Shown: positions 4,409 through 18,251 of the stretch, piece after piece
Layout of the letters: every line of letters starts with the position of its first letter
Numbering within the stretch: position 1 is the stretch's first letter
Translations under genes and position numbers: made by a program
Notes under the pieces: model-generated
Seen by the model: only the letters and a program-made list of their open reading frames with translations
Told to the model about the DNA's origin: nothing
Databases searched by the model: none
Origin: Gemmatimonadaceae bacterium
GTDB taxonomy: Bacteria > Gemmatimonadota > Gemmatimonadetes > Gemmatimonadales > Gemmatimonadaceae
Assembly: GCA_019689955.1 (NCBI GenBank)
Contig: JADGGM010000002.1
Coordinates: 1 to 18,274, forward strand
Direction: 5' to 3'
DNA: 18,274 nucleotides

Positions 4409-7128
4409 CTAGAAGTTGTACGCGATCGATGCCTGGAAGCGCCGCGGCAGAATCGGGCGCGCGAGGAACAGATCGCTCGTCCGCCCGCCGACGAGGCTCA
4501 GACGCGGGTTCCCCTCTTCCAGTCCCTTCGATTGGTACAGATTGAGAAGCTGCGCCGACACCGTGATGCCCCGCTGCGGGAACGCCTTCGACAGCGTGAG
4601 GTTCATGTAGCTGTACGTCGGCAGCCGGTCGCGGTGCCCGGTGCTGTCGGCGAACGATGAGTAGCGGCGATCCACGAAGTGCCAGTCAGCGATGAGGTCG
4701 ATCCCGTACGGTGCCGCATAGCTGGCCGACAGGTTGCCGATAACCGGGGGCACGCCGAGCAACAGCGTCCCGACGTCCGCCCCTTCGGGCACGGGAGCTG
4801 AGTCGCCGAGGAATCCGGGCAGTCGGGATAGTCGGCCTTGAGGAGCGTTCCGGTTGCGAGGAAGGAGAGCCCGCGGATCGGCTCCACCGACGCCTCCACC
4901 TCGACACCATAGGAGCGGTTCTCCGGGTTCGTCTGGATGATCCAGATCGGATTGCCGGTTTGCGGATCGGTGACGAGCCCCTGCGACGTGATGTCCTTCA
5001 GCACCGTGAAGAAGCCGTTCACGGCCAGCGAGAAGTCCGCGGCGGCATGCTTCACCCCGGCCTCGACGCTCCAGTTCCGGCGCGGCTTGAACTGCGCCAC
5101 CTGCGCCTGCGACGTCGCGTTGAGCAGTTCATCCAGCGCCGGCATCTTGTACCCCCGGCTCCCCTGGGCGTACAGCGCCGTCCGATTCGTGAGCGCGTAG
5201 TTCATCCCGATCGAGCCGGCCCAGTCATGCATGGACCGGTTGAAGTGCCGGAACGATCCGTTGCCGAACGTCTCGTTGTCGTACGTCGTCGCGGGATTGC
5301 CATCGAGGTCGACCGGCGACGTGTTTTCCGCCGTCTGCACGAAGCTGTCCCATTCGTAGCGGAAGCCGACGTCCGCACGAAGACGGTCGGTCAACTGGAG
5401 CGAGGTGCCGAGGACCGGGGAGAACACCGTCGTCTGCCCCTCACCGTTCGTGTACAACGAGAGGAAGTTGCGGAACCCGTTCTTCGTGACGAAGATCGTG
5501 TCGTTCCCCTGGAACGCGAGCAGATCGAGGAAATGCGGTTGGTCGCGCACGTCCATCAGGATGTCCGTGAAATACCACCGATTGGTCTGCGTGTAGTTCG
5601 CGAAATACATCCCCAGCGACACGCTGTGCTGCCCGAACTGCTTCCGGAGCTGGAGCTGGTTCTGGAACGCCGAGATCGGCTTCTCGACGTGCCACTCGCC
5701 GCTCGGTGCGACGAGGTGGTTCGGGTTGTCGAATGCCAGGCGCGTCGTGCCCGTTGCGTCGAACACGTTCGTATAGATCAACTTGGTCGAGTCCGCGGCC
5801 AGCCCGAGCCCAGCGATCCACACCGAGTCCCGCATCACATCGGACGGCACGATCGCGTTCCACTCCTGATTGTTCTGCATCACCTGCGCGGTGTTCTGGA
5901 TGTGCCAGCCGGTGCCGAAGTCGAATCCCGCATCGGCCGTGAGCCAGTACGCCTGCGTCCGCAGCCCGTTGTCGAGCGGGAGCTCGAGCTGCCCGGTCGG
6001 GATCGGCACGACCACGTGGTTCCCCTCGGCCGTGCTCATCGAGCCGTAGTTCGTGAACCCTGGCACGTAGCCGGGATCGTCCGGGTTCCGGAACGGGAGG
6101 GGGAGGATGCACTGATTGCGATCTCCGATGTACTTGACCGACGCGCGCACGTAGCCGTTGTCGAGCAGCCGCGTGACGTTCGCCTTGAGCTGGCCTCCGC
6201 GGATTCCGGGGAATCCCGGATCACGCACGCCGTGATCGTAGCGATAGAAGCCACCGACGTTGAACCGCCAGTTCTCGCCGAGCGGGCCGTTCAGGTTGAA
6301 GTCGTAGCGCAGGAGCTCCTGCGTCGCGGCGGACATCTTTAGCGTCCCCTGGAGCTCGTCTCCGCCGGTCTTGTTGATGTAGTTGATGATGGCGCCGGGG
6401 GTGTTCGACCCGAACAACGCCGAGCTCCCGCCCCGGACGACTTCCATGCGCTGGAGGTTCTCGTCGGGGCGGAAGAGGTTGTCGGCGTTCATGAAAAACG
6501 TGTGCATCGTCGGGAAGACCGGCAGCCCGTCCTCCATGAACATGACGTACTCCACACCGAGAATGCCGCGCATGGTGATGTTCTCGTTCACCTCGCCGCC
6601 GGAGCTCTCCACGCGGGTGAAGCCTGGTACGTAACGGAGCATCTCCGTCGTGCTTCGCGGCGCGGCTTGATTGATCTCCTACAGTGACATGGTCGTCGTC
6701 GCGTTGCTCGTCTCGAGGTTCGTGCGCGGTGTCGCGGTCCCCGTGACGACGACGGACTGGAGCTGCAGCGGGTCGCGCTCCAGGGTGAAGTTCTGCGTGG
6801 CGCGTTGGCCGGCGGCGATGGTGACCGAGGCGGCTTCACTCCGGTAGCCGATGCGACGCGCGCGGATCGAGTGCGTCCCCGCCGGGACGCGCCCGATGGT
6901 GTACGTGCCCGTGGTGTTCGTCATCGTGCCCAGCGTCGTCCCTTCCACGAACACCTGCACGTTGGCCAGGGGCGCGCCTTCCTGATCGTTGACCACCCCC
7001 GTGACAGACCCGGTGGTGTCTTGCGCCTGCACGCCGACGGTCAGCATCACCGTGAGCAGGAGCGTCGGCGCCGCGATCAGCAGAACGGCGCGAAGCGGTC
7101 GCGGATTCCAACGTGAGCGTCGTGTCAT
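4409..7128 (-). pseudogene. TonB-dependent outer-membrane receptor, broken by a nonsense codon and a frameshift
   Basis: Read through its lesions, this encodes about 906 residues. It has a signal peptide (cleavage near VGVQA-QD) and a CarboxypepD_reg-like beta-sandwich (about residues 38-130). A TonB-box-like SVVVTGTA, a plug domain (NENITMRG, VVRGGSSALFGSNTPGAIIN) and a 22-strand-type barrel ending in FQASIAYNF follow. Such receptors import large ligands across the outer membrane with TonB energy; the ABC genes next door suggest a sugar. Lesion 1 is TAG at 6681-6679 within MSL*EINQAAPRSTTEML, same frame on both sides; a CAG-to-TAG change would explain it. Lesion 2 is at about 4787-4790: the frame moves as if one C were lost from a C run, changing PCPKGRTS into the expected PEGADVGTLLLGVPP. 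GGAGGA (7141-7136) precedes ATG 7128 by 7 nt. Sequencing error at either site cannot be excluded. Confidence 0.82.
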
Positions 7129-10739: not shown

Positions 10740-11249
10740 TCAGTCCTCGTCCTCGACCTCCAGCTCGCCGCGCATCCCGAGGAGGGCGTGCGGATCGCAC
10801 TGGAAGTAGTAATCGCCGGGCTCGAGGTTGACGAGCAAGTCCAGCGTCTGTCCCGGGAGCTGCAACAGCTCCGAGGCCGGCGGGAGGTCCTTCTTGCCGG
10901 GGTTCGAGTCGGGGAGGAAGTGGACGTTGTGCACGCCGGTCTTGAGGGTGTAGCGGACCACATCCCCGCGATGCGCCTCGATCTTCTTCGGCTTGAAGTA
11001 GTTCCCAGTCTCGTCGGTGATGAGCTCCACGACGATCACCTTCCGCCCCGGCGCGGGGGTGAGCGGGGTCGTCGAGAGCGCTGCGCCCCCGCCCCCTCCC
11101 CCGGCGCCGCTCGGCGCCGCCGCGCTCGGCGCAGCCGCGCTCTCCGGGGCGGACGTCGTCGGCTTCCCCTTCTCACCGCACGCGGCGGCGAGGAGTGCGA
11201 TGCCGGCGGCGATCCCTATGGTTCGCGTACGTTGCAAAGTCAGTCTCAT
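10740..11249 (-). CDS. Plastocyanin-like blue copper lipoprotein of the nos operon
   Basis: A 169-residue protein. It has a lipoprotein signal (IALLAAAC, Cys24), a low-complexity Ala/Pro/Ser/Gly tether (about residues 30-72, with a run of six Gly) and a C-terminal cupredoxin domain. Type 1 copper ligands are visible: a His in VHNVHF (His107, or less likely His110), then Cys151, His154 and Met159 in FQCDPHALLGM, which gives plastocyanin spacing (C-x2-H-x4-M). A membrane-tethered one-electron carrier in the periplasm is expected. As the last gene of the nos cluster, 45 nt after nosY, it is a plausible electron donor to NosZ. A copper-delivery role is the alternative. ATG 11249 is preferred over a longer in-frame start because it puts the signal peptide at the N-terminus; GAGG lies about 9 nt upstream. 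Confidence 0.85.
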   Translation of the reverse strand: MRLTLQRTRTIGIAAGIALLAAACGEKGKPTTSAPESAAAPSAAAPSGAGGGGGGAALSTTPLTPAPGRKVIVVELITDETGNYFKPKKIEAHRGDVVRYTLKTGVHNVHFLPDSNPGKKDLPPASELLQLPGQTLDLLVNLEPGDYYFQCDPHALLGMRGELEVEDED

Positions 11250-11294
11250 GCGTGATAGCCTCGAGTCGAAGAGTAGTCCGGCGCTCGTGCGCAT

Positions 11295-12086
11295 TCAGAA
11301 GTCCTTGCGCCGGAAGGCGCGGGCGCCGAGGGTGGCCGGAGCCGCGATCCAGAGCGCGAGCGCGGCGGCGGCGGTGGCGGTCCCCGCGGCGGTGCCGAGG
11401 AACCGTTGGAGCACGGCGCCCGTGTACCCCATGAGCGCCGCGGCGTCGAGCTGCAGGAGCAGCGCGACCCGTGCAAGATCGACCGGGTTCGCCAGCATCA
11501 GCGCGATCATCGGCCGCTCCAGCTGGTAGTCGGCGAACGTCGCCACCAGGAGCAGCACGACCCCGTCGTACACCAGCGAGCAGGCGAGCCAGATCCCGAT
11601 CGCCGCGCCGAGCGCGCGCAGGCGGTCATCGGTCCGCACGGCGATCAGGAGCGCGATCCCGGTGAAGATCGCCGTGAGCGCCACCCCCACCGCGATCAGC
11701 GTCGCGAGCGGCGCGCGGAGCGCGGGGTCGTCCACCCCGTGCAGCGCGAACGGGAGGCCGAGCCCCACGACGAACCCCACCGCCAACGGGAGCACGAGGC
11801 CCAGATAGAGCCCCGCGAACAACTGCCTCCGCCGCACCGGCTGCGCGAGCACCAGCTCGATGAACTCGCGCGCGTTGTACACGTACACCGTGCCGAACAC
11901 GATCGTCGCCAGCGGCACCACGAACATCACGACGCTCGCCACGCTCGCGAGCGCCTGTGCGCTCCCGCCCGCGAAGCGCAGCAGCCCCTCGGTCGCGGCG
12001 GCGAAGAACAGCGTGTACGCCGCCAGCCACCGGCTCCGCGCGACGTCGCGCGCCTGGTAGCGCACCATCTTCCACATGGTCGTCAT
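11295..12086 (-). CDS. nosY: NosY, ABC transporter permease for NosZ maturation
   Basis: A 263-residue integral membrane protein with about six hydrophobic helices (FVVPLATIVFGTVYVY, LGLVLPLAVGFVVGLGLPFA, IAVGVALTAIFTGIALLIAV and others). It has the NosY/ABC-2-type pattern NAREFIELVLAQPVRRRQLF between helices. With NosF it forms the ABC transporter that, in known systems, works with NosD to supply a sulfur species for assembly of the CuZ centre. ATG 12086 overlaps the nosF stop by 4 nt (ATGA). It is complete, with the family's usual length. Confidence 0.92.
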   Translation of the reverse strand: MTTMWKMVRYQARDVARSRWLAAYTLFFAAATEGLLRFAGGSAQALASVASVVMFVVPLATIVFGTVYVYNAREFIELVLAQPVRRRQLFAGLYLGLVLPLAVGFVVGLGLPFALHGVDDPALRAPLATLIAVGVALTAIFTGIALLIAVRTDDRLRALGAAIGIWLACSLVYDGVVLLLVATFADYQLERPMIALMLANPVDLARVALLLQLDAAALMGYTGAVLQRFLGTAAGTATAAAALALWIAAPATLGARAFRRKDF

Positions 12087-12802
12087 GCGGCCACCCCCCG
12101 CAGCATCACCTCGGCGATCGCGCGCTCGAGGTTGCTCTGGCGCGTGCGGCGCTTCAGCTCGTGGACCGGGCCGTGGTAGCGCACGCACCCATCGAGCAGG
12201 AACGCGACGTCGTCGGCCAGCTCCTCGAGCTCGCCCATGTTGTGCGACGTGAGGAGCACCGTCCGCCCCGCCCCGCGCGATGCGAGGATCGCATCCTTGA
12301 GCGTGCTGCTCGCGACCGGGTCGAGCCCCGCCGTCGGCTCGTCGAGGATGAGGAGCTCCGGGTGGAAGAGGAAGGCGATCACCGCGTTCACTTTCTGCCG
12401 CGTCCCGCCGGAGAGGACGCGCAGCGGCTTCGAGAGCTCCCGCTCGATTCCGAGCGCGCCGATCAGCGTCTCGTCGCGCCGCGCGGCGCACGCCGCCCCG
12501 CGCAGGTCGGTGAGCATGGCGAGGAGCTCCGCCCCCGTGAGGTTGTCCGGGAAGCGCGCGATCTGCGGCATGTACCCGATCCGGGCGCGGTGCGCATGGC
12601 CGTCGCCGATCGGTACGCCGTCGAAGCGGATCTCCCCCGCGTCGGGGCGCACGAGGCCGACGATCATCTTGATGAGCGTCGTCTTCCCCGCCCCGTTCGG
12701 CCCGACGATCGCGGTCACGCGGGCCGGGGCGATCGCGAGGTCGACCGCCTGGAGCACGCGCTGCGCGCCGAACGCCTTCTCTACACGACGGATGTCGATC
12801 AT
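12083..12802 (-). CDS. nosF: NosF, ABC transporter ATPase for NosZ maturation
   Basis: A 239-residue ABC ATPase with all catalytic motifs: Walker A GPNGAGKT (34-41), Q-loop MPQ (Gln80), signature LSGGTRQK (130-137), Walker B LLILDEP with Glu155, D-loop AGLDP and H-loop His187 (TSHN). It energises NosY on the cytoplasmic side. ATG 12802 overlaps the preceding stop by 4 nt; the upstream extension of the same frame is a shadow of NosD. Context between nosD and nosY fixes the identification, since sequence alone would only say ABC-2-type ATPase. Confidence 0.93.
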   Translation of the reverse strand: MIDIRRVEKAFGAQRVLQAVDLAIAPARVTAIVGPNGAGKTTLIKMIVGLVRPDAGEIRFDGVPIGDGHAHRARIGYMPQIARFPDNLTGAELLAMLTDLRGAACAARRDETLIGALGIERELSKPLRVLSGGTRQKVNAVIAFLFHPELLILDEPTAGLDPVASSTLKDAILASRGAGRTVLLTSHNMGELEELADDVAFLLDGCVRYHGPVHELKRRTRQSNLERAIAEVMLRGVAA

Positions 12803-14484
12803 GGGACGCGGTGCATGCGCGGGTGATGGTCGCTCACCGCGGCCGGGGTGAGGACGGGGAGCGCGCGCTCGGCGGCGTCGAGCACGGCCACGAGCGGGCT
12901 CCGAAGCAGGACCAGCGACGGCTCGTGCTGCGCAACCACGAGCGAGAAGAAGCGCACGGGGTGGTACGGCACGTCGCCGGCGCCATCGCGGTCCAGGTCG
13001 TACCCGCCGTAGCCGTCCCAGTAGTTGCCGTCGAACGTCGTGCTGAGCGTGCGGCTGGCGGTCGCCACATCGAAGGTGTTGCCCACGAAGTCGTTCGCCG
13101 TGAAGCGGCCGTCCTGCGTGTCCCCCTCCAGGCGCACCGCCCACCCGTTGCTGACGAAGTCGTTGCGCTCCGCTACGAGCCGTTCGGCGCCGTCGGCCAG
13201 GAGGGCGACGGTGTTGTGGTCGAAGACATTGTGCGCGATGCGGCTGTCGGCGATCTCCTTGAGGAGGAGCCCGTAGGCCGCGCTCCCCCAGTTCTGCTCG
13301 AACCGGTTCCCGGTCATCTCCACGCGGTGCGCGTACATCACCGCCACGCCGGCGCCGTTCGCGCGAAAAATGTTGTCGCGGTAGCGGCAATCATCGGAGT
13401 ACATGAAGTGGAGCCCATAGCGCAGGTTCCCGGTGCTCACGTTGCGGCGGATGTCGCTCCCGGTCGTGAACTCGAGGTAGATCCCGTCACGGTGCCCGGC
13501 GACGTGGTTGTCCTCCACGGTGATGCCGTGCGCCGACCAGAGGTGGATCCCGTTCCCCGATGACGACTCGCGCTCCGCGCGCCCGCGCACGACGTTGCGC
13601 GCCACCACGCAGTCCGTCGCCCTGGCGAGGTAGATGCCGAAGAAGGCGTCGTCGACCATGTTGTCGCGGATCACGCAGTGGCGCGCCCCCGAGACCTTGA
13701 TCGCCGCGCGGTCCTCGATGAAGCTCGCCCCCACGTGCGCGAAGCGGAGCCCCTGGACCGTGACGTCGTCGGCGGTGACGGTCATGATCTGCCGCGCCCC
13801 TTCGCCGTCGAGCGTCGGGCGCCCTTCGCCGGTGATGGTCACGGGGCGGTCGACGACGATCGTCGGCTCGCGGTACGTCCCCGGGCGGACGACGATCCGC
13901 CCGCCGCGCGCCACGCGCTGCAGCGCCGCAGTGATGGTGCGCACCGGCCCGGCGGGATCGACGGTGACCGTCCGCTCGCCGCCCGCCGCGGTAACCGGCG
14001 CGGCGGTCTCGATCGGCGCGCGTCCCTCGCGCGCGGCCGCGGCGAGCATCTCCGTCCAGCCGAGCGACTCGCCGCCGAAGCGGGCGCGCAGCGCGGCCGC
14101 GTCGCGCGCCGTCGCGACCGCGAGCAGGCCGCGCCCCATCGGGCTCCCCGGCCCCGGCACGCGCAGGTAGAGCGCGGTGCGCGCCGGGATCAACGTCCCC
14201 GGGTGCGCGTAGTCGCTCACCCACAGCGATCGCACGCGCGCGCTGTCGGTCGACGCGTAGTACCCGGCCAGGCACTCGATCGAATCGAAGCGCAGCACCT
14301 TCCCGGTCTGCGTGACCAGCTCCGCGCCGAATCGCGGATCGGTGATCTGCATCCGGCAGTAGTCGCAGCTGTCGCGGCCGTACGCGATCGGCGCGGGATC
14401 GCGCCCCACGCACGCCGCGCTGCCGGCGACGAGCGCCACGACGAGCGCACGCCGCATCACCCATCCGCGCGGCGCGCGAGTCAC
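12799..14484 (-). CDS. nosD: NosL-NosD fusion protein (copper chaperone lipoprotein joined to NosD beta-helix)
   Basis: One uninterrupted 561-codon frame encodes two proteins that are normally separate. Residues 1-25 are a lipoprotein signal (ALVAGSAAC, Cys25). Residues about 26-150 are NosL-like: Cys40-Asp-Tyr-Cys43-Arg-Met45 (SCDYCRM) followed by ITDPRF, a strand with GKVLRFDSIECLAGYY, and a second Met in SPMGRGLL. NosL is a Cu(I)-binding chaperone for NosZ. After a short Ala/Glu/Arg linker, residues about 171-561 are NosD. They form a right-handed beta-helix of about 20-residue turns with GNGIHLWSAHGITVEDNHV, HRDGIYLEFTTGSDIRRN and YGLHFMYSDDCRYRDN. The start is probably GTG 14484, overlapping the upstream TGA by 4 nt like the other junctions; ATG 14457 is possible. 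NosD would thus be tethered to the membrane with the copper chaperone. Confidence 0.9.
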   Translation of the reverse strand: MTRAPRGWVMRRALVVALVAGSAACVGRDPAPIAYGRDSCDYCRMQITDPRFGAELVTQTGKVLRFDSIECLAGYYASTDSARVRSLWVSDYAHPGTLIPARTALYLRVPGPGSPMGRGLLAVATARDAAALRARFGGESLGWTEMLAAAAREGRAPIETAAPVTAAGGERTVTVDPAGPVRTITAALQRVARGGRIVVRPGTYREPTIVVDRPVTITGEGRPTLDGEGARQIMTVTADDVTVQGLRFAHVGASFIEDRAAIKVSGARHCVIRDNMVDDAFFGIYLARATDCVVARNVVRGRAERESSSGNGIHLWSAHGITVEDNHVAGHRDGIYLEFTTGSDIRRNVSTGNLRYGLHFMYSDDCRYRDNIFRANGAGVAVMYAHRVEMTGNRFEQNWGSAAYGLLLKEIADSRIAHNVFDHNTVALLADGAERLVAERNDFVSNGWAVRLEGDTQDGRFTANDFVGNTFDVATASRTLSTTFDGNYWDGYGGYDLDRDGAGDVPYHPVRFFSLVVAQHEPSLVLLRSPLVAVLDAAERALPVLTPAAVSDHHPRMHRVP

Positions 14485-15179
14485 GCGGACACCTCCGCGG
14501 GGCGGGGGTGGGGGGCGCGCGCGTCGGTGTCCGGCTCGCCCACCGCGTCGGCCCGGACGTCGGCCGGCGCACCGCTCGCCCCGCCCGCGAGCTGGCGACG
14601 CCGGCTCACCACCAGCGCCGCCACCGCGAGCGCGACGGCGAGCGCCGCCACCCACGCGCCGGGACCGGGCCACGAGATCGCCGTGAAGTTGAGCAGTTGC
14701 TTCGAGCCGATGATCGGGGGCTGGTAGGTCATTCCCGGCACCTTGATGATCGCGTGCTCGAGGTCAAGGTTGTGCCCGTAGTCGTGCTCCCACCGCCAGA
14801 ACTCCGCGAGGCCAGCGAGCGACAACCCGACGAAGCTCACGAGCCAGGCGATGAGGAGCTTCCGCCGCCCCACGAGCGCCACGACGAGCCCTGTGAGCAC
14901 CAGCGCACCCACCACCCACGGCATGATGTGGAGCACCGGGATCGCATGCGGGTCGATCGTCTTCATGCCGATGTAGTGATTGAGCTCGTTGATGTTGTCG
15001 AGGTCGTTCGGCGATACGCCCCGCACCGTGTTGAGGTGGATCTCGAGCCCGAGCCCCTCCGGGTACTGCGGCGCGAGCAGGTAGATGCGCCACAGCGGGA
15101 GCGCGAACAACGTCGACAACAGCAACGCGGCGGCCGCGGTGAGCAGTCTCGCGTACTTCGACATGGTCATGATCGGCAT
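14481..15179 (-). CDS. NosB-like polytopic membrane protein of the clade II nos cluster
   Basis: A 232-residue protein with four predicted membrane helices: about 9-34 (ending FALPLWRIYLLAPQYPEGL), 84-105, 108-130 and 171-195. A periplasmic-type loop between helices 1 and 2 carries HYIGM and PHAIPVLH. The segment after helix 3 is rich in acidic residues and His (EFWRWEHDYGHNLDLEH). The C-terminal tail is polar and acidic. The position directly after nosZ and before nosD fits NosB, the membrane protein typical of clade II clusters, whose exact function is not settled. I recognise the family from context and topology rather than from a catalytic motif. Three in-frame ATGs (15179, 15170, 15164) compete. 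GGAG at 15184-15181 is only 1 nt from the first and 10 nt from the second, so ATG 15170 may be the true start. Confidence 0.75.
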   Translation of the reverse strand: MPIMTMSKYARLLTAAAALLLSTLFALPLWRIYLLAPQYPEGLGLEIHLNTVRGVSPNDLDNINELNHYIGMKTIDPHAIPVLHIMPWVVGALVLTGLVVALVGRRKLLIAWLVSFVGLSLAGLAEFWRWEHDYGHNLDLEHAIIKVPGMTYQPPIIGSKQLLNFTAISWPGPGAWVAALAVALAVAALVVSRRRQLAGGASGAPADVRADAVGEPDTDARAPHPRPAEVSA

Positions 15180-15255: not shown

Positions 15256-17265
15256 TCAGCGCCCGCCCGAGGCCGCGTGCATCGCGGCCTGCGCCTTCGG
15301 GCTCACGTTCGCCACGAGCGGCACCGACGACCCGGCCGGCGACACGCGCACGTACCCCTGCATCTCCTGGTGCAGCGCCGAGCAGAAGTCAGTGCAGTAG
15401 AACGGATAGATCCCCGGCGCCTGCGGCACCCAACGGATCGACCGCGTCTCCCCCGGGAGCAGGATCAACTGCGAGTTCTGGTTCCCCAGCACCGCGAAGC
15501 CGTGCAGGATGTCCCAGTCCTGCTCGATGTTCGTGACATGGAAGTACACCGTGTCACCCACCTGCACCCCTTCGATGTTGTCCGGGGTGAAGTGGCTGCG
15601 GATCGCGGCCATCTTCACGTCCACCCGTTTCCCGCGGCGCGCGATCCCGCCGTCGCTCTCCGCGTGCACCGCGTACGGGTTCCGGTTCGCGGAGAGCTTG
15701 AAGTACTTCACCTGCTTGTCCTTGATCAGGCTCGCCGGGATCGCCTGCGCGTAGTGCGGCTCCCCCATGGTCGGGAAGTCGAGCAGGAGCTTCATCTTGT
15801 CGCCGCTGATGTCGATCAGCTGCGCCGACTGCGCCAGCTCGGGCCCCGTGGGGAGGTAGCGGTCCTTCGTGATCTTGTTGAGCGAGACGAGGTACTTCCC
15901 CCACGGCTGGCGGCTGTCGCCGCCGGGGATCATGAGGTGCCCCACCGAGTAATAGACCGGGATCCGGTCCACCACCTCCCACGTGCCGAGCTTCCACTTC
16001 ACGATCTCGGAGGAGATGAACATCGAGGTGTACGCGTACCCCTTCCCGTCGAACTCCGTGTGCAACGGACCGAGCCCGGGCTTCTGGACCTCGCCGGCCA
16101 CGACGGCCTGGTAGCTCAGGACGGGGATCCCGTCGACCACCGAGTCGAACTGCTTCGCCGCGATCGCCTTCTGCATCTTCGAGAACGAGTGCACCGGGAT
16201 CACGGTGGAGAGCTTCCCGCCGGCCACGATGTACTCCCCCGTCGGATCGACATCCACGCCGTGCGGCGACTTGGGAGTCGGGAGGAAGTACATGAGCCCG
16301 TCGCAGCGCGCGGGGTCGAGCACGCGCACGCTCGTCTTCCGCTCACTCTTCGCGACGTGGGTGACCGAATCGATGTAGTTGTGGACGTAGGCGGTCGGCA
16401 TGACGCGCGCCTTCCCCTCAGCCACACACTGTTCCGCGCGGCGGTAGTTCACCGCGGCCACGTAGTCCTTGTCGTTCTGCGACGCGTTCACCTCGAGCTT
16501 CGTCGTCGCCTGCTCGGTGTTGTACGAGGTGAAGAAGAACCACCCATCCGACGGCCCCTTCCCCGCGTGCGCGAGGTCGTAGTCGTACCCCGGGACGAGG
16601 ATCTGGAAGGCGACGTCCATCTTCTCCGGCTGGTCGGCCGTGATGAACGAGAGCACCCCCTTGAAGTTCCGCGCGTACGTGTCGATCGCGACGTCGGCGT
16701 TCGGCACGGGGATGCTGAAGCGCGTAGCCGAGACGATGTACTTGGTGTTCGGCGTCGTGAACGGCGTCGCGTGCGCGCCCGCGGCGTTCGGGATCTGCAG
16801 GATCTCATCCGTCTGGAACCGGGTGAGGTCGATGCGCGCGACGCGCGGCGTGTTGTTGGCGTTGATGAACAGCCAGCGGCCGTCGGGGACGCCGTCGGTC
16901 TGCGACAGCTCCGGGTGGTGTGCGTCGTCCCAGGGCACCATCCCGTAGGTCGTCTGGAGCATCGCCTTCGTCTCCTCGTCGTACCCGTAGCCGTTCTCGG
17001 GGAAGACGGAGAAGACGGGGATGGTCTTGATCAGGCGGCCTGAGGGGAGGGCGTAGACGGTGACCTGCCCGCTGAACCCGCCGGAGAAGAACGCGTAGAA
17101 CTCGTCGTACGAGCCGGGGGGGACGTAGACGCGGCTCGCCGCATCCCCGGTGACGAGGCGCTGCGAGGTCTTGGGCACTCGGGACGTGCAGGCGAACAGA
17201 AGCGCCCCGATGATCGCACCTGCACCGAGTCCGGAGAGCAGTGTACGAGAGGCGATGCGTGGCAT
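15256..17265 (-). CDS. nosZ: Nitrous-oxide reductase NosZ, clade II
   Basis: NosZ reduces N2O to N2 + H2O outside the cytoplasm. The 669-residue protein has a seven-bladed propeller with the seven CuZ histidines: His116 and His117 (DDAHHPEL), His165 (GAHATPF), His335 (SPHGVDVD), His402 (PLHTEF), His443 (SVGHLMIP) and His504 (GEPHYAQ). A cupredoxin domain holds CuA: His588, Cys624, Cys628, His632 and Met635 (CTDFCSALHQEM). The leader MPRIASRTLLSGLGAGAIIG lacks a twin-arginine motif and is Sec-type, which with the linked nosB-type gene indicates clade II. It ends at LLFAC (Cys26), an imperfect lipobox. ATG 17265 has GAGG (17274-17271) 5 nt upstream. It is the first gene of the operon and diverges from the DUF542 gene. 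Confidence 0.97.
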   Translation of the reverse strand: MPRIASRTLLSGLGAGAIIGALLFACTSRVPKTSQRLVTGDAASRVYVPPGSYDEFYAFFSGGFSGQVTVYALPSGRLIKTIPVFSVFPENGYGYDEETKAMLQTTYGMVPWDDAHHPELSQTDGVPDGRWLFINANNTPRVARIDLTRFQTDEILQIPNAAGAHATPFTTPNTKYIVSATRFSIPVPNADVAIDTYARNFKGVLSFITADQPEKMDVAFQILVPGYDYDLAHAGKGPSDGWFFFTSYNTEQATTKLEVNASQNDKDYVAAVNYRRAEQCVAEGKARVMPTAYVHNYIDSVTHVAKSERKTSVRVLDPARCDGLMYFLPTPKSPHGVDVDPTGEYIVAGGKLSTVIPVHSFSKMQKAIAAKQFDSVVDGIPVLSYQAVVAGEVQKPGLGPLHTEFDGKGYAYTSMFISSEIVKWKLGTWEVVDRIPVYYSVGHLMIPGGDSRQPWGKYLVSLNKITKDRYLPTGPELAQSAQLIDISGDKMKLLLDFPTMGEPHYAQAIPASLIKDKQVKYFKLSANRNPYAVHAESDGGIARRGKRVDVKMAAIRSHFTPDNIEGVQVGDTVYFHVTNIEQDWDILHGFAVLGNQNSQLILLPGETRSIRWVPQAPGIYPFYCTDFCSALHQEMQGYVRVSPAGSSVPLVANVSPKAQAAMHAASGGR

Positions 17266-17270
17266 GGCAA

Positions 17271-17274
17271 CCTC
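17271..17274 (-). promoter_or_regulatory. Ribosome binding site of nosZ
   Basis: GAGG on the minus strand, 5 nt before ATG 17265. It fixes the start well inside a longer open frame that extends to 17427. Confidence 0.6.
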
Positions 17275-17362
17275 GTGGCAAGTGTACGGATCCCGCGCCG
17301 CCGCGAGCGGCCAGGGGTGAATCCTCGGGCGGGAAGGTAGGCTCGCCAGGCTGGCCCAAGAA

Positions 17363-17424
17363 TCGGGGAAGCTCGCACGCCACGTCAGGAGAGGTCGGGG
17401 GGCACCCGGTCGGCGCTTCCCCGA
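17363..17424. promoter_or_regulatory. Long-spaced inverted repeat in the nosZ/DUF542 divergent promoter region
   Basis: Perfect 10-bp arms TCGGGGAAGC (17363-17372) and GCTTCCCCGA (17415-17424), 42 nt apart. They sit about 98-160 nt upstream of nosZ and 79-140 nt upstream of the DUF542 gene. This could be paired sites for one regulator, or a leader structure of the nosZ mRNA. No FNR/NNR-type TTGAT-N4-ATCAA box was seen in the 237-nt gap. Confidence 0.35.
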
Positions 17425-17467
17425 CACGCATCCGGAAAAGGGCCGACTGCCCGCGGATCGCGATGGT

Positions 17468-17502: not shown

Positions 17503-17772
17503 GTGCTGCAGGCTCCATTCATCGACCCGGCGTGGACGATCGTCGAAGTGCTCCGCCGCTATCCGAGCACGCTCCGCGTGTTCCTCGAGTACGGGATCGA
17601 CGTCGGGTGCGGGAGCGGCGCGACGCTCGCTGAGGCAGCGGCCCGCGACGGCGCGGACCTGCGGGTGCTGCTCGACGCGCTTCAGGAGACGGCCCGCGAG
17701 CGCTGGCCGGCCTACCACGCGACGACCGCGTCGCACCACCATCTCCACCGCCAGGTCGAGGCCTGTCCATGA
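17503..17772 (+). CDS. Short stand-alone DUF542 (ScdA_N-like) protein
   Basis: An 89-residue cytoplasmic protein matching the DUF542 domain found at the N-terminus of ScdA/RIC iron-sulfur repair proteins. It has WTIVEVLRRYPSTLRVFLEY, then GIDVGCGSGATLAEAA, then the helix LRVLLDALQ. The family normally has two adjacent cysteines (CCGG); here the sequence is GCGS, so only one Cys is left at this place (a second Cys is near the C-terminus, EACP). The hemerythrin-like domain of full RIC proteins is absent, although the tail has a His cluster (SHHHLHRQ). Full-length relatives respond to nitrosative and oxidative damage. Divergence from nosZ suggests a role in N-oxide respiration, as inference. Its stop overlaps the next gene's ATG by 4 nt. 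Confidence 0.78.
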   Translation: MLQAPFIDPAWTIVEVLRRYPSTLRVFLEYGIDVGCGSGATLAEAAARDGADLRVLLDALQETARERWPAYHATTASHHHLHRQVEACP

Positions 17773-18251
17773 GCTGGTCCACCCGCGCGTTCATCAAGGC
17801 GAGCCTGGCCTGGCTCACGGTAAGCGTCACGCTCGGGGTCGCGGTCGTCTTCCACCCGGAGTGGGGGACGTTCGCCCCGGCCGCGGCGGTCGCGGGGCTG
17901 CTCGGCTTCGTGTCGATGGTGCTCTTCGGCCTGATGTATCACCTGCTTCCGCGCATGGCCGGCCGCCCGCTCGAGAGCGACGCGGTCGCGGAAGCGCACT
18001 GGTGGCTGGCGAACGTGGGGCTCGTGCTCATCATGGGCGGGATCGTCTTCGAGCCGCTGCACTTCGAGCTCTCGAGCGCGATGGTGCTCGTCGGGACGGG
18101 GCTCTCCGCAGCCGGGGGGTACACCTTCGTGGTGAACCTGTGGCGCACCTTCACCCCGGCAAACGCCCCGACGACGGACGGCGAGCGCGAAGGGCACGAG
18201 CCGGTCCGTCCCCCCCGTCGCGTGATCGCGCGCCTCTCGATCCTGCGGTAG
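17769..18251 (+). CDS. Four-helix membrane protein resembling short cytochrome oxidase subunit I homologues
   Basis: A 160-residue protein with four predicted helices (about 9-28, 36-61, 80-100, 104-125) and a polar, Pro/Arg-rich C-tail. Segments such as LLGFVSMVLFGLMYHLLPRM, AGRPL and AEAHWWLANVGLVLIMGG match small stand-alone homologues of haem-copper oxidase subunit I that occur near denitrification genes. As I recall the family, an AHxH-type motif precedes the LLGFVSM segment. Here that place reads APAAAVAG, so the first histidine pair is missing, while the His of MYH and of EAHWW are kept. Function unknown; a membrane haem or redox role is a guess. ATG 17769 overlaps the DUF542 stop (ATGA), so the two are one operon. 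Confidence 0.75.
   Translation: MSWSTRAFIKASLAWLTVSVTLGVAVVFHPEWGTFAPAAAVAGLLGFVSMVLFGLMYHLLPRMAGRPLESDAVAEAHWWLANVGLVLIMGGIVFEPLHFELSSAMVLVGTGLSAAGGYTFVVNLWRTFTPANAPTTDGEREGHEPVRPPRRVIARLSILR

What the first reader, a model, noticed from the sequence alone, without database searches (positions are those of the whole stretch)
12799..14484. NosL and NosD fused into one membrane-anchored maturation factor
The frame runs unbroken from a lipoprotein signal and a NosL copper motif (CDYCRM) through a short linker into a full NosD beta-helix. NosL and NosD are classically separate proteins. The fusion would fix the Cu(I) chaperone next to the NosD-NosFY complex at 1:1 stoichiometry and replace NosD's own signal peptide by lipid anchoring. 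I cannot say from memory how widespread this fusion is.
Basis: partly seen in the sequence, partly recalled or inferred. Interest (0 to 1): 0.7.

Follow-up and report, generated by a model that had tools for sequence, protein, structure and literature searches.

The report
Copper chaperone NosL fused to NosD
In a Gemmatimonadota bacterium, two proteins that normally work separately to load copper into the enzyme that destroys the greenhouse gas nitrous oxide are joined into one protein with a lipid-anchor signal; relatives carry the same join, so it is real and testable.

Summary
One unbroken minus-strand frame (14484-12799, 561 aa) carries a lipoprotein signal, a NosL domain with an intact CxxCxM copper site, a linker of about 22 residues and a full NosD beta-helix, inside a clade II nosZ-nosB-[nosL-nosD]-nosF-nosY operon. 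An artefact is very unlikely: 81 of 301 other fetched proteins share the architecture, and the copper residues never vary in 57 aligned fusions. NosD's own signal peptide is gone. The fusion is uncommon per genome (4 of 110 examined nosD loci), but its state changes at least 8 times on supported branches of a NosD tree. It belongs to a wider pattern: nosB, nosL, nosD and nosF are joined as B-L, B-D, L-D, B-L-D and D-F. Where NosB or NosF takes part, a hydrophobic segment sits at the junction in 178 of 180 scored cases, as topology demands. NosB-NosL and NosB-NosC2 fusions are in print; my searches found no mention of the others. Most likely it is a working tethered Cu(I) chaperone-acceptor pair at the cytoplasmic membrane. 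It bears on where NosL sits and what NosB does.

The parts
12799..14484 (-). nosL-nosD fusion gene, 561 aa, GTG start, TGA stop
   Evidence: open frame; PF05573 and PF05048; TIGR04247
14492..14496 (-). GGAGG, likely ribosome-binding site, 7 nt before the GTG start
   Evidence: sequence upstream of 14484
14413..14484 (-). lipoprotein signal peptide, residues 1-24; acceptor Cys25 is 14410-14412
   Evidence: hydrophobic segment 9-25; this Cys is invariant in 24 of 24 NosL rows of A1
14035..14409 (-). NosL domain, about residues 26-150
   Evidence: PF05573 37-146; match to 7osf_H/7znq_L 25-154
14350..14367 (-). CDYCRM, the CxxCxM Cu(I) motif, residues 40-45
   Evidence: C40, C43, M45 invariant in the 57 fusions of A2; CxxCxM in 76 of 82 L-D proteins, the other 6 having predicted starts at the motif's Met; motif described in PMC6530538 (passages)
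14137..14139 (-). Met116 of SPMG, a further conserved Met of NosL
   Evidence: invariant in the 57 fusions of A2
13966..14031 (-). interdomain linker, residues 152-173, no His, no signal-like stretch in any frame of this strand
12811..13935 (-). NosD beta-helix domain, residues 184-558
   Evidence: TIGR04247 425.9 bits; 7o0y_A E 7.9e-45
14481..15179 (-). nosB, four hydrophobic segments, LNHYIGM and YGHN motifs
   Evidence: hydropathy and sequence; motifs as in PMC9697520 (passage); own HMM seeded from this protein
15256..17427 (-). nosZ, clade II Sec-dependent N2O reductase (start codon not settled)
   Evidence: TIGR04246 929.1 bits, cut-off 625
12083..12802 (-). nosF, ABC ATPase, ATGA overlap with the fusion
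   Evidence: PF00005; overlap
11295..12086 (-). nosY, ABC permease, ATGA overlap with nosF
   Evidence: PF12679; overlap
10740..11294 (-). plastocyanin-like cupredoxin, next gene, possible electron donor (inference)
   Evidence: PF00127

Best explanation
A functional two-domain maturation factor for the CuZ centre of NosZ. The NosL signal peptide directs Sec export and lipid attachment at Cys25; NosL binds one Cu(I) through CxxCxM; the linker keeps it beside the covalently attached NosD, which docks on NosFY in the cytoplasmic membrane and passes copper to NosZ. The join makes chaperone and acceptor 1:1, removes a diffusion step and keeps NosL at the cytoplasmic rather than the outer membrane. 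It arose by loss of the nosL stop and of the nosD signal-peptide region, and has arisen or been lost repeatedly. Shown here: frame, domains, intact copper motif, loss of NosD's signal, recurrence, operon. Inferred: lipidation, docking, copper hand-over, membrane location.
For: Domains over cut-off. C40, C43, M45, C71 and M116 invariant in the 57 fusions aligned, out of 82 found; CxxCxM in 76 of 82, the other 6 having predicted starts at the motif's Met. Pfam finds NosL in 55 and NosD in 57 of those 57. 82 of 302 fetched proteins are L-D, the window's included. The only copy of each found in the genome. No hydrophobic segment between the domains in 75 of 82, against an N-terminal one in 33 of 34 stand-alone NosD. 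At least 8 state changes forced by supported branches, one clade rejected at p-AU 4.85e-12. NosL relays Cu to NosD of NosDFY in P. stutzeri: stated in PMC13068155 (passage).
Against: Uncommon per genome (4 of 110 loci). Of 30 genomes without a strong NosL at the locus, two of the window's own genus among them, 27 have no detectable NosL at all, so NosL is dispensable in near relatives. The contig carries an apparent frameshift in another gene, so base-level quality may not be perfect. No expression, lipidation or copper data; no structure. The linker has no His, unlike many NosL tails, so it looks like a plain tether. The lipobox (SAAC) is weak by recalled consensus; a lipobox pattern is seen in 58 of 82 L-D proteins.
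Confidence: 0.75

Rival explanations
1. Assembly or base-calling artefact: an indel joined two neighbouring genes that lie in different frames.
For: In 85 of 89 unfused nosL-nosD neighbours nosD lies in another frame than nosL, so one indel could join them; a TonB receptor on this contig is split between frames at about 4603-4792.
Against: 81 other proteins (clusters at 90% identity) have the same architecture, one of them on a 573-kb contig (P0003); no signal-like stretch remains in any of the three frames of the linker DNA; codon-position GC is steady.
Confidence: 0.02
2. A fusion of convenience that is cut apart after export, so that mature NosL and NosD work separately as usual.
For: In B-D, B-L and B-L-D fusions a hydrophobic junction segment is kept (110 of 112, 51 of 51, 12 of 12 scored); by permissive patterns 111 of 112 B-D have an AxA-like site and 45 of 51 B-L and 11 of 12 B-L-D a lipobox-like one. 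Five L-D proteins of 600 aa keep a NosD-type signal in the linker.
Against: The window linker has no hydrophobic segment (best 11-residue mean 0.82, threshold 1.6) and no signal-like stretch in any frame; some other periplasmic protease would be needed.
Confidence: 0.12
3. Neutral fusion: neighbouring overlapping genes fuse and split often with no functional gain; NosL next to NosD is tolerated because they already bind each other.
For: Neighbouring genes of this cluster fuse in many combinations; the L-D state changes often; two same-genus genomes show no NosL at all.
Against: NosD's signal is cleanly replaced and the copper site kept, so the product is constrained; but constraint does not show an advantage over the split form.
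Confidence: 0.35

Closest known systems
NosL lipoprotein chaperone and NosD of NosDFY (PDB 7osf, 7znq, 7o0y)
   Same: Same two families, same operon role, Cu(I) motif and lipoprotein signal
   Different: Two separate chains there; one chain here, with NosD's own signal peptide lost
NosB-NosL fusion (Dyadobacter fermentans, Flavobacterium; PMC9697520, passages)
   Same: Fusion of neighbouring clade II nos accessory genes involving NosL
   Different: Partner is membrane protein NosB, and in the B-L proteins scored here the NosL signal is kept internally (51 of 51 hydrophobic); in the window the partner is NosD and no internal signal remains
NosB-NosC2 fusion (mentioned in PMC11409646, passage)
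   Same: Another joined pair of nos cluster products
   Different: NosC2 is named in an electron transport module (reference title seen), not in copper delivery
Stand-alone nosB, nosL, nosD order of many Gemmatimonadota
   Same: Same gene order (56 of 110 loci unfused with nosL)
   Different: nosD often starts at or overlaps the nosL stop, in another frame in 85 of 89, and its leader reads as a signal peptide in the rows shown

Membership tests
NosL (PF05573) | profile match over the curated cut-off | tested here: met
   43.6 bits against 24
NosL, clade II type | CxxCxM motif and a further conserved Met | tested here: met
   C40, C43, M45 and M116 present, invariant in the 57 fusions of A2; definition from PMC6530538 passages
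NosL | lipoprotein signal with acceptor Cys | tested here: inconclusive
   Cys25 at the end of a hydrophobic segment, column invariant in 24 of 24; the box SAAC is weak by recalled consensus, no signal predictor was at hand and lipidation is not shown
NosL | binds one Cu(I) | not testable with these tools
   needs protein
NosD (TIGR04247) | profile match over the curated cut-off across the full length | tested here: met
   425.9 bits against 300, profile 1-377 of 377
NosD | own Sec signal peptide (usual, not part of the family model) | tested here: not met
   none in the linker; export is presumably by the NosL signal instead
NosD | encoded next to nosF and nosY | tested here: met
   fusion overlaps nosF, nosF overlaps nosY, both by ATGA
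Clade II nos cluster | Sec-dependent NosZ and a nosB | tested here: met
   TIGR04246 929.1 bits; nosB by its two published motifs and four hydrophobic segments
NosB-NosL fusion class | NosB and NosL in one frame | tested here: not met
   separate genes with a GTGA overlap in the window

The most novel reading that the evidence does not exclude
NosB, NosL, NosD and NosF are parts of one membrane-embedded copper-delivery machine, and evolution has joined neighbouring members with the right transmembrane spacing. On this reading NosB, a membrane protein of unknown function, is a structural partner of NosL-NosDFY (holding or relaying copper at its periplasmic His/Met loops) rather than an electron carrier, and NosL works at the cytoplasmic membrane, not the outer one.
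Probability: 0.4. Interest if true: 0.75.

Novelty: new variant of a known kind. Interest (0 to 1): 0.5.

Why it matters
N2O reduction by NosZ is called the only biological pathway of N2O consumption (abstract of PMC11237620, seen in the listings), and NosL is needed for CuZ assembly when copper is short (PMC6530538, passages). A natural NosL-NosD chain supports direct chaperone-to-NosD transfer at the cytoplasmic membrane, against the printed supposition that NosL sits in the outer membrane (PMC6530538; PMC7660919). It also offers a ready single-chain construct for structural work. [quoted passage not shown] PMC9697520 already drew such a hint from the NosB-NosL fusion.

Tried and rejected
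Artefact by indel: nearly refuted, see rivals. Linker as a frameshifted signal peptide: the linker DNA of five fused loci (window, L011, L015, L032, L109) was read in three frames; none reads as a signal peptide, the most hydrophobic out-of-frame stretch (1.35, L011) lying at the start of the NosD domain. His-rich linker as a copper relay: NosL C-terminal tails in the loci hold 12.0% His (99 tails, B-L loci and a few duplicate loci included), tails of 55 B-L proteins 7.7%, 82 L-D linkers 4.7%, the NosL and NosD domains of the L-D proteins 1.7 and 2.8%, the window linker none, so it is not a feature of this protein. Foreign or misbinned contig: tetranucleotide distance of three window parts to the own-bin pool is 0.10-0.16, own contigs left out in turn 0.12-0.18 (8 contigs of 4 kb or more), 11 loci of other genomes 0.21-0.80; rejected, on a small pool. 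Pfam PF05573 as a test of NosL absence: it missed three genomes where the own HMM sees NosL (G080, G159, G284), so it was replaced by alignment A1. NosB by sequence in the PDB: one chance-level hit, E 0.86. No Rfam family at gathering threshold in the window. Other phyla could not be surveyed evenly (one search failed).

Limits of the counts: the 302 proteins come from three capped or length-limited searches, two of them built to favour fusions, so their proportions are not frequencies. A2 holds 57 of the 82 L-D proteins, my choice; the 25 left out include six whose predicted start lies at the motif's Met. Of 145 genomes with any match, 108 were examined at 110 loci; the other 37 had weak or partial hits or were not fetched, and some of the 110 loci are cut by contig ends, so 'no nosL at the locus' includes such cases (G100's NosL lies on another contig). 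Five B-D and four B-L proteins could not be scored at the junction. For the trees, nine duplicate loci, short or low-scoring NosD stretches and four in five of the B-D proteins were dropped; searches used subsets of 96 and 46 of the 270 rows, picked after the first tree was seen. Results against a tidy picture: in 6 of 12 B-L-D proteins the NosL site is altered (three lack the first Cys of CxxCxM, three the PM motif).

Full report
What is there. The minus strand from 17427 to 10740 reads nosZ, nosB, nosL-nosD, nosF, nosY, cupredoxin. nosB, the fusion, nosF and nosY overlap by GTGA, ATGA and ATGA, so they are probably translated together. The fusion starts at GTG 14484 with GGAGG 7 nt upstream and ends at 12799. 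NosL scores 43.6 bits against a cut-off of 24, NosD 425.9 against 300. Against solved structures the two halves match NosL and NosD as separate chains.

Is it real. 82 of 302 fetched proteins, the window's among them, carry NosL then NosD in one chain. In 57 of them, chosen and aligned, C40, C43, M45, C71 and M116 never vary; CxxCxM is present in 76 of all 82, and the other six have predicted starts at the motif's Met. The named contig JAGWRB010000186.1 (L032, 64% identical in its best segment) has the same operon and fusion. The contig's composition fits its own bin.

How common. In a sample of 395 genomes of the phylum 145 had a match. I examined 110 nosD loci of 108 genomes: no fusion among nosB, nosL and nosD with nosL present in 56; no fusion and no nosL in 26; B-L in 21; B-D (no nosL) in 3; L-D in 3; B-L plus L-D in 1. 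So L-D is in 4 of 110 loci, the window's included. On a NosD tree of 46 chosen rows the L-D state needs 10 changes, 8 of them forced by well-supported branches, and one clade is rejected (p-AU 4.85e-12). On 96 rows it is 19, 9 forced. Gain and loss cannot be told apart by these counts. The window groups with three other fusions (95/87), next to stand-alone NosD proteins.

How it is built. Among 89 unfused nosL-nosD neighbours nosD often begins at or near the nosL stop and lies in another frame in 85; stand-alone NosD has an N-terminal hydrophobic segment in 33 of 34. In L-D fusions a hydrophobic stretch between the domains reaches the threshold in 7 of 82, five of these a family of 600 aa that keeps a NosD-type signal. 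No signal-like stretch remains in any frame of the five linkers whose DNA is held. So the fusion removed stop and signal, and one signal, NosL's lipoprotein signal, is left.

The wider pattern. The same set holds 117 B-D, 55 B-L and 12 B-L-D proteins. The window's NosB has four hydrophobic segments and by the positive-inside rule (recalled) ends inside the cell, so a periplasmic partner needs one more crossing: a hydrophobic junction segment is present in 110 of 112 B-D, 51 of 51 B-L and 12 of 12 B-L-D proteins that could be scored. Most of these junctions keep AxA-like or lipobox-like sites by permissive patterns, so such chains may be cut after export; the window's L-D chain lacks that and should stay whole. 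In 6 of 12 B-L-D proteins the NosL copper motifs are altered. In five of five Calditrichota/KSB1 loci NosD and NosF share one frame with one hydrophobic segment between the NosD domain and the NosF Walker A motif. Loss of nosL is also common: of 30 genomes without a strong NosL at the locus, 27 show none anywhere (G100, G197 and G204 do), while all 5 control genomes do.

How it works. NosL binds Cu(I) tightly and is needed for CuZ when copper is short (PMC6530538, passages); NosL relays copper to NosD in complex with NosFY (PMC13068155, passage; the structural paper under doi 10.1038/s41586-022-05015-2, as I recall it, is not held). A covalent pair would do this at 1:1. [quoted passage not shown] PMC6530538). 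In a fused chain both are hard to reconcile if NosD is to dock on NosFY, so the fusion argues for the cytoplasmic membrane. That is inference.

What is in print. NosB-NosL (PMC9697520, passages) and NosB-NosC2 (PMC11409646, passage) fusions are described. In eight searches (listings) and passages of twelve papers I saw no NosL-NosD, NosB-NosD, NosB-NosL-NosD or NosD-NosF fusion. I read no paper in full, and most subscription papers are not held. Where a source names such proteins, it calls them NosD or nitrous oxidase accessory protein, so the sequences are public though the architecture seems unremarked.

Verdict. A real, recurrent, probably functional fusion; a new variant of a known kind. 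Interest 0.5: moderately surprising alone, more so as part of the B/L/D/F fusion set.

Noticed in passing
L058, L059, L060, L061, L062 (Calditrichota and KSB1 MAG contigs): NosD and NosF share one open frame with one hydrophobic segment between them, joining the periplasmic and cytosolic parts of NosDFY in one chain (5 of 5 loci).
   Followed up: partly
P0022, P0031, P0040, P0064, P0066, P0073, P0107, P0110, P0115, P0120, P0171, P0228: Twelve NosB-NosL-NosD triple fusions of 720-825 aa; in six of them the NosL site is altered (P0040, P0066, P0073 lack the first Cys; P0110, P0115, P0120 the PM motif).
   Followed up: partly
P0184-P0302 (117 of these 119); L014, L019, L133: NosB-NosD fusions; the three genomic loci have no nosL and those three genomes (G016, G048, G156) show no NosL anywhere.
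   Followed up: partly
L015, L084, L096, L103, L105, L109: Loci with two NosL domains, one weaker (fused to NosB in five of them), the other separate or fused to NosD; the L-D linkers of L015 and L109 are rich in His.
   Followed up: no
G200 and G362 (same genus as the window): nosB-nosD without any NosL found in the genome; G200 also has a second full clade II NosZ at C67:100551-102350.
   Followed up: no
window 4409-7128, minus strand: TonB-dependent receptor gene in pieces: a carboxypeptidase-regulatory-like N-terminal part, plug and barrel (profile 55-353), and the barrel's end (356-436) in another frame; decay or sequencing error.
   Followed up: partly
window 17503-18251, plus strand: ScdA_N/DUF542-like small protein followed by a short COX1-like membrane protein (below Pfam's cut-off), divergent from nosZ; may belong to nitrogen-oxide or oxygen handling.
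   Followed up: no
P0049, P0050, P0054, P0058, P0068: Five L-D fusions of 600 aa that keep a NosD-type signal peptide inside the linker, a possible young stage of the fusion.
   Followed up: partly
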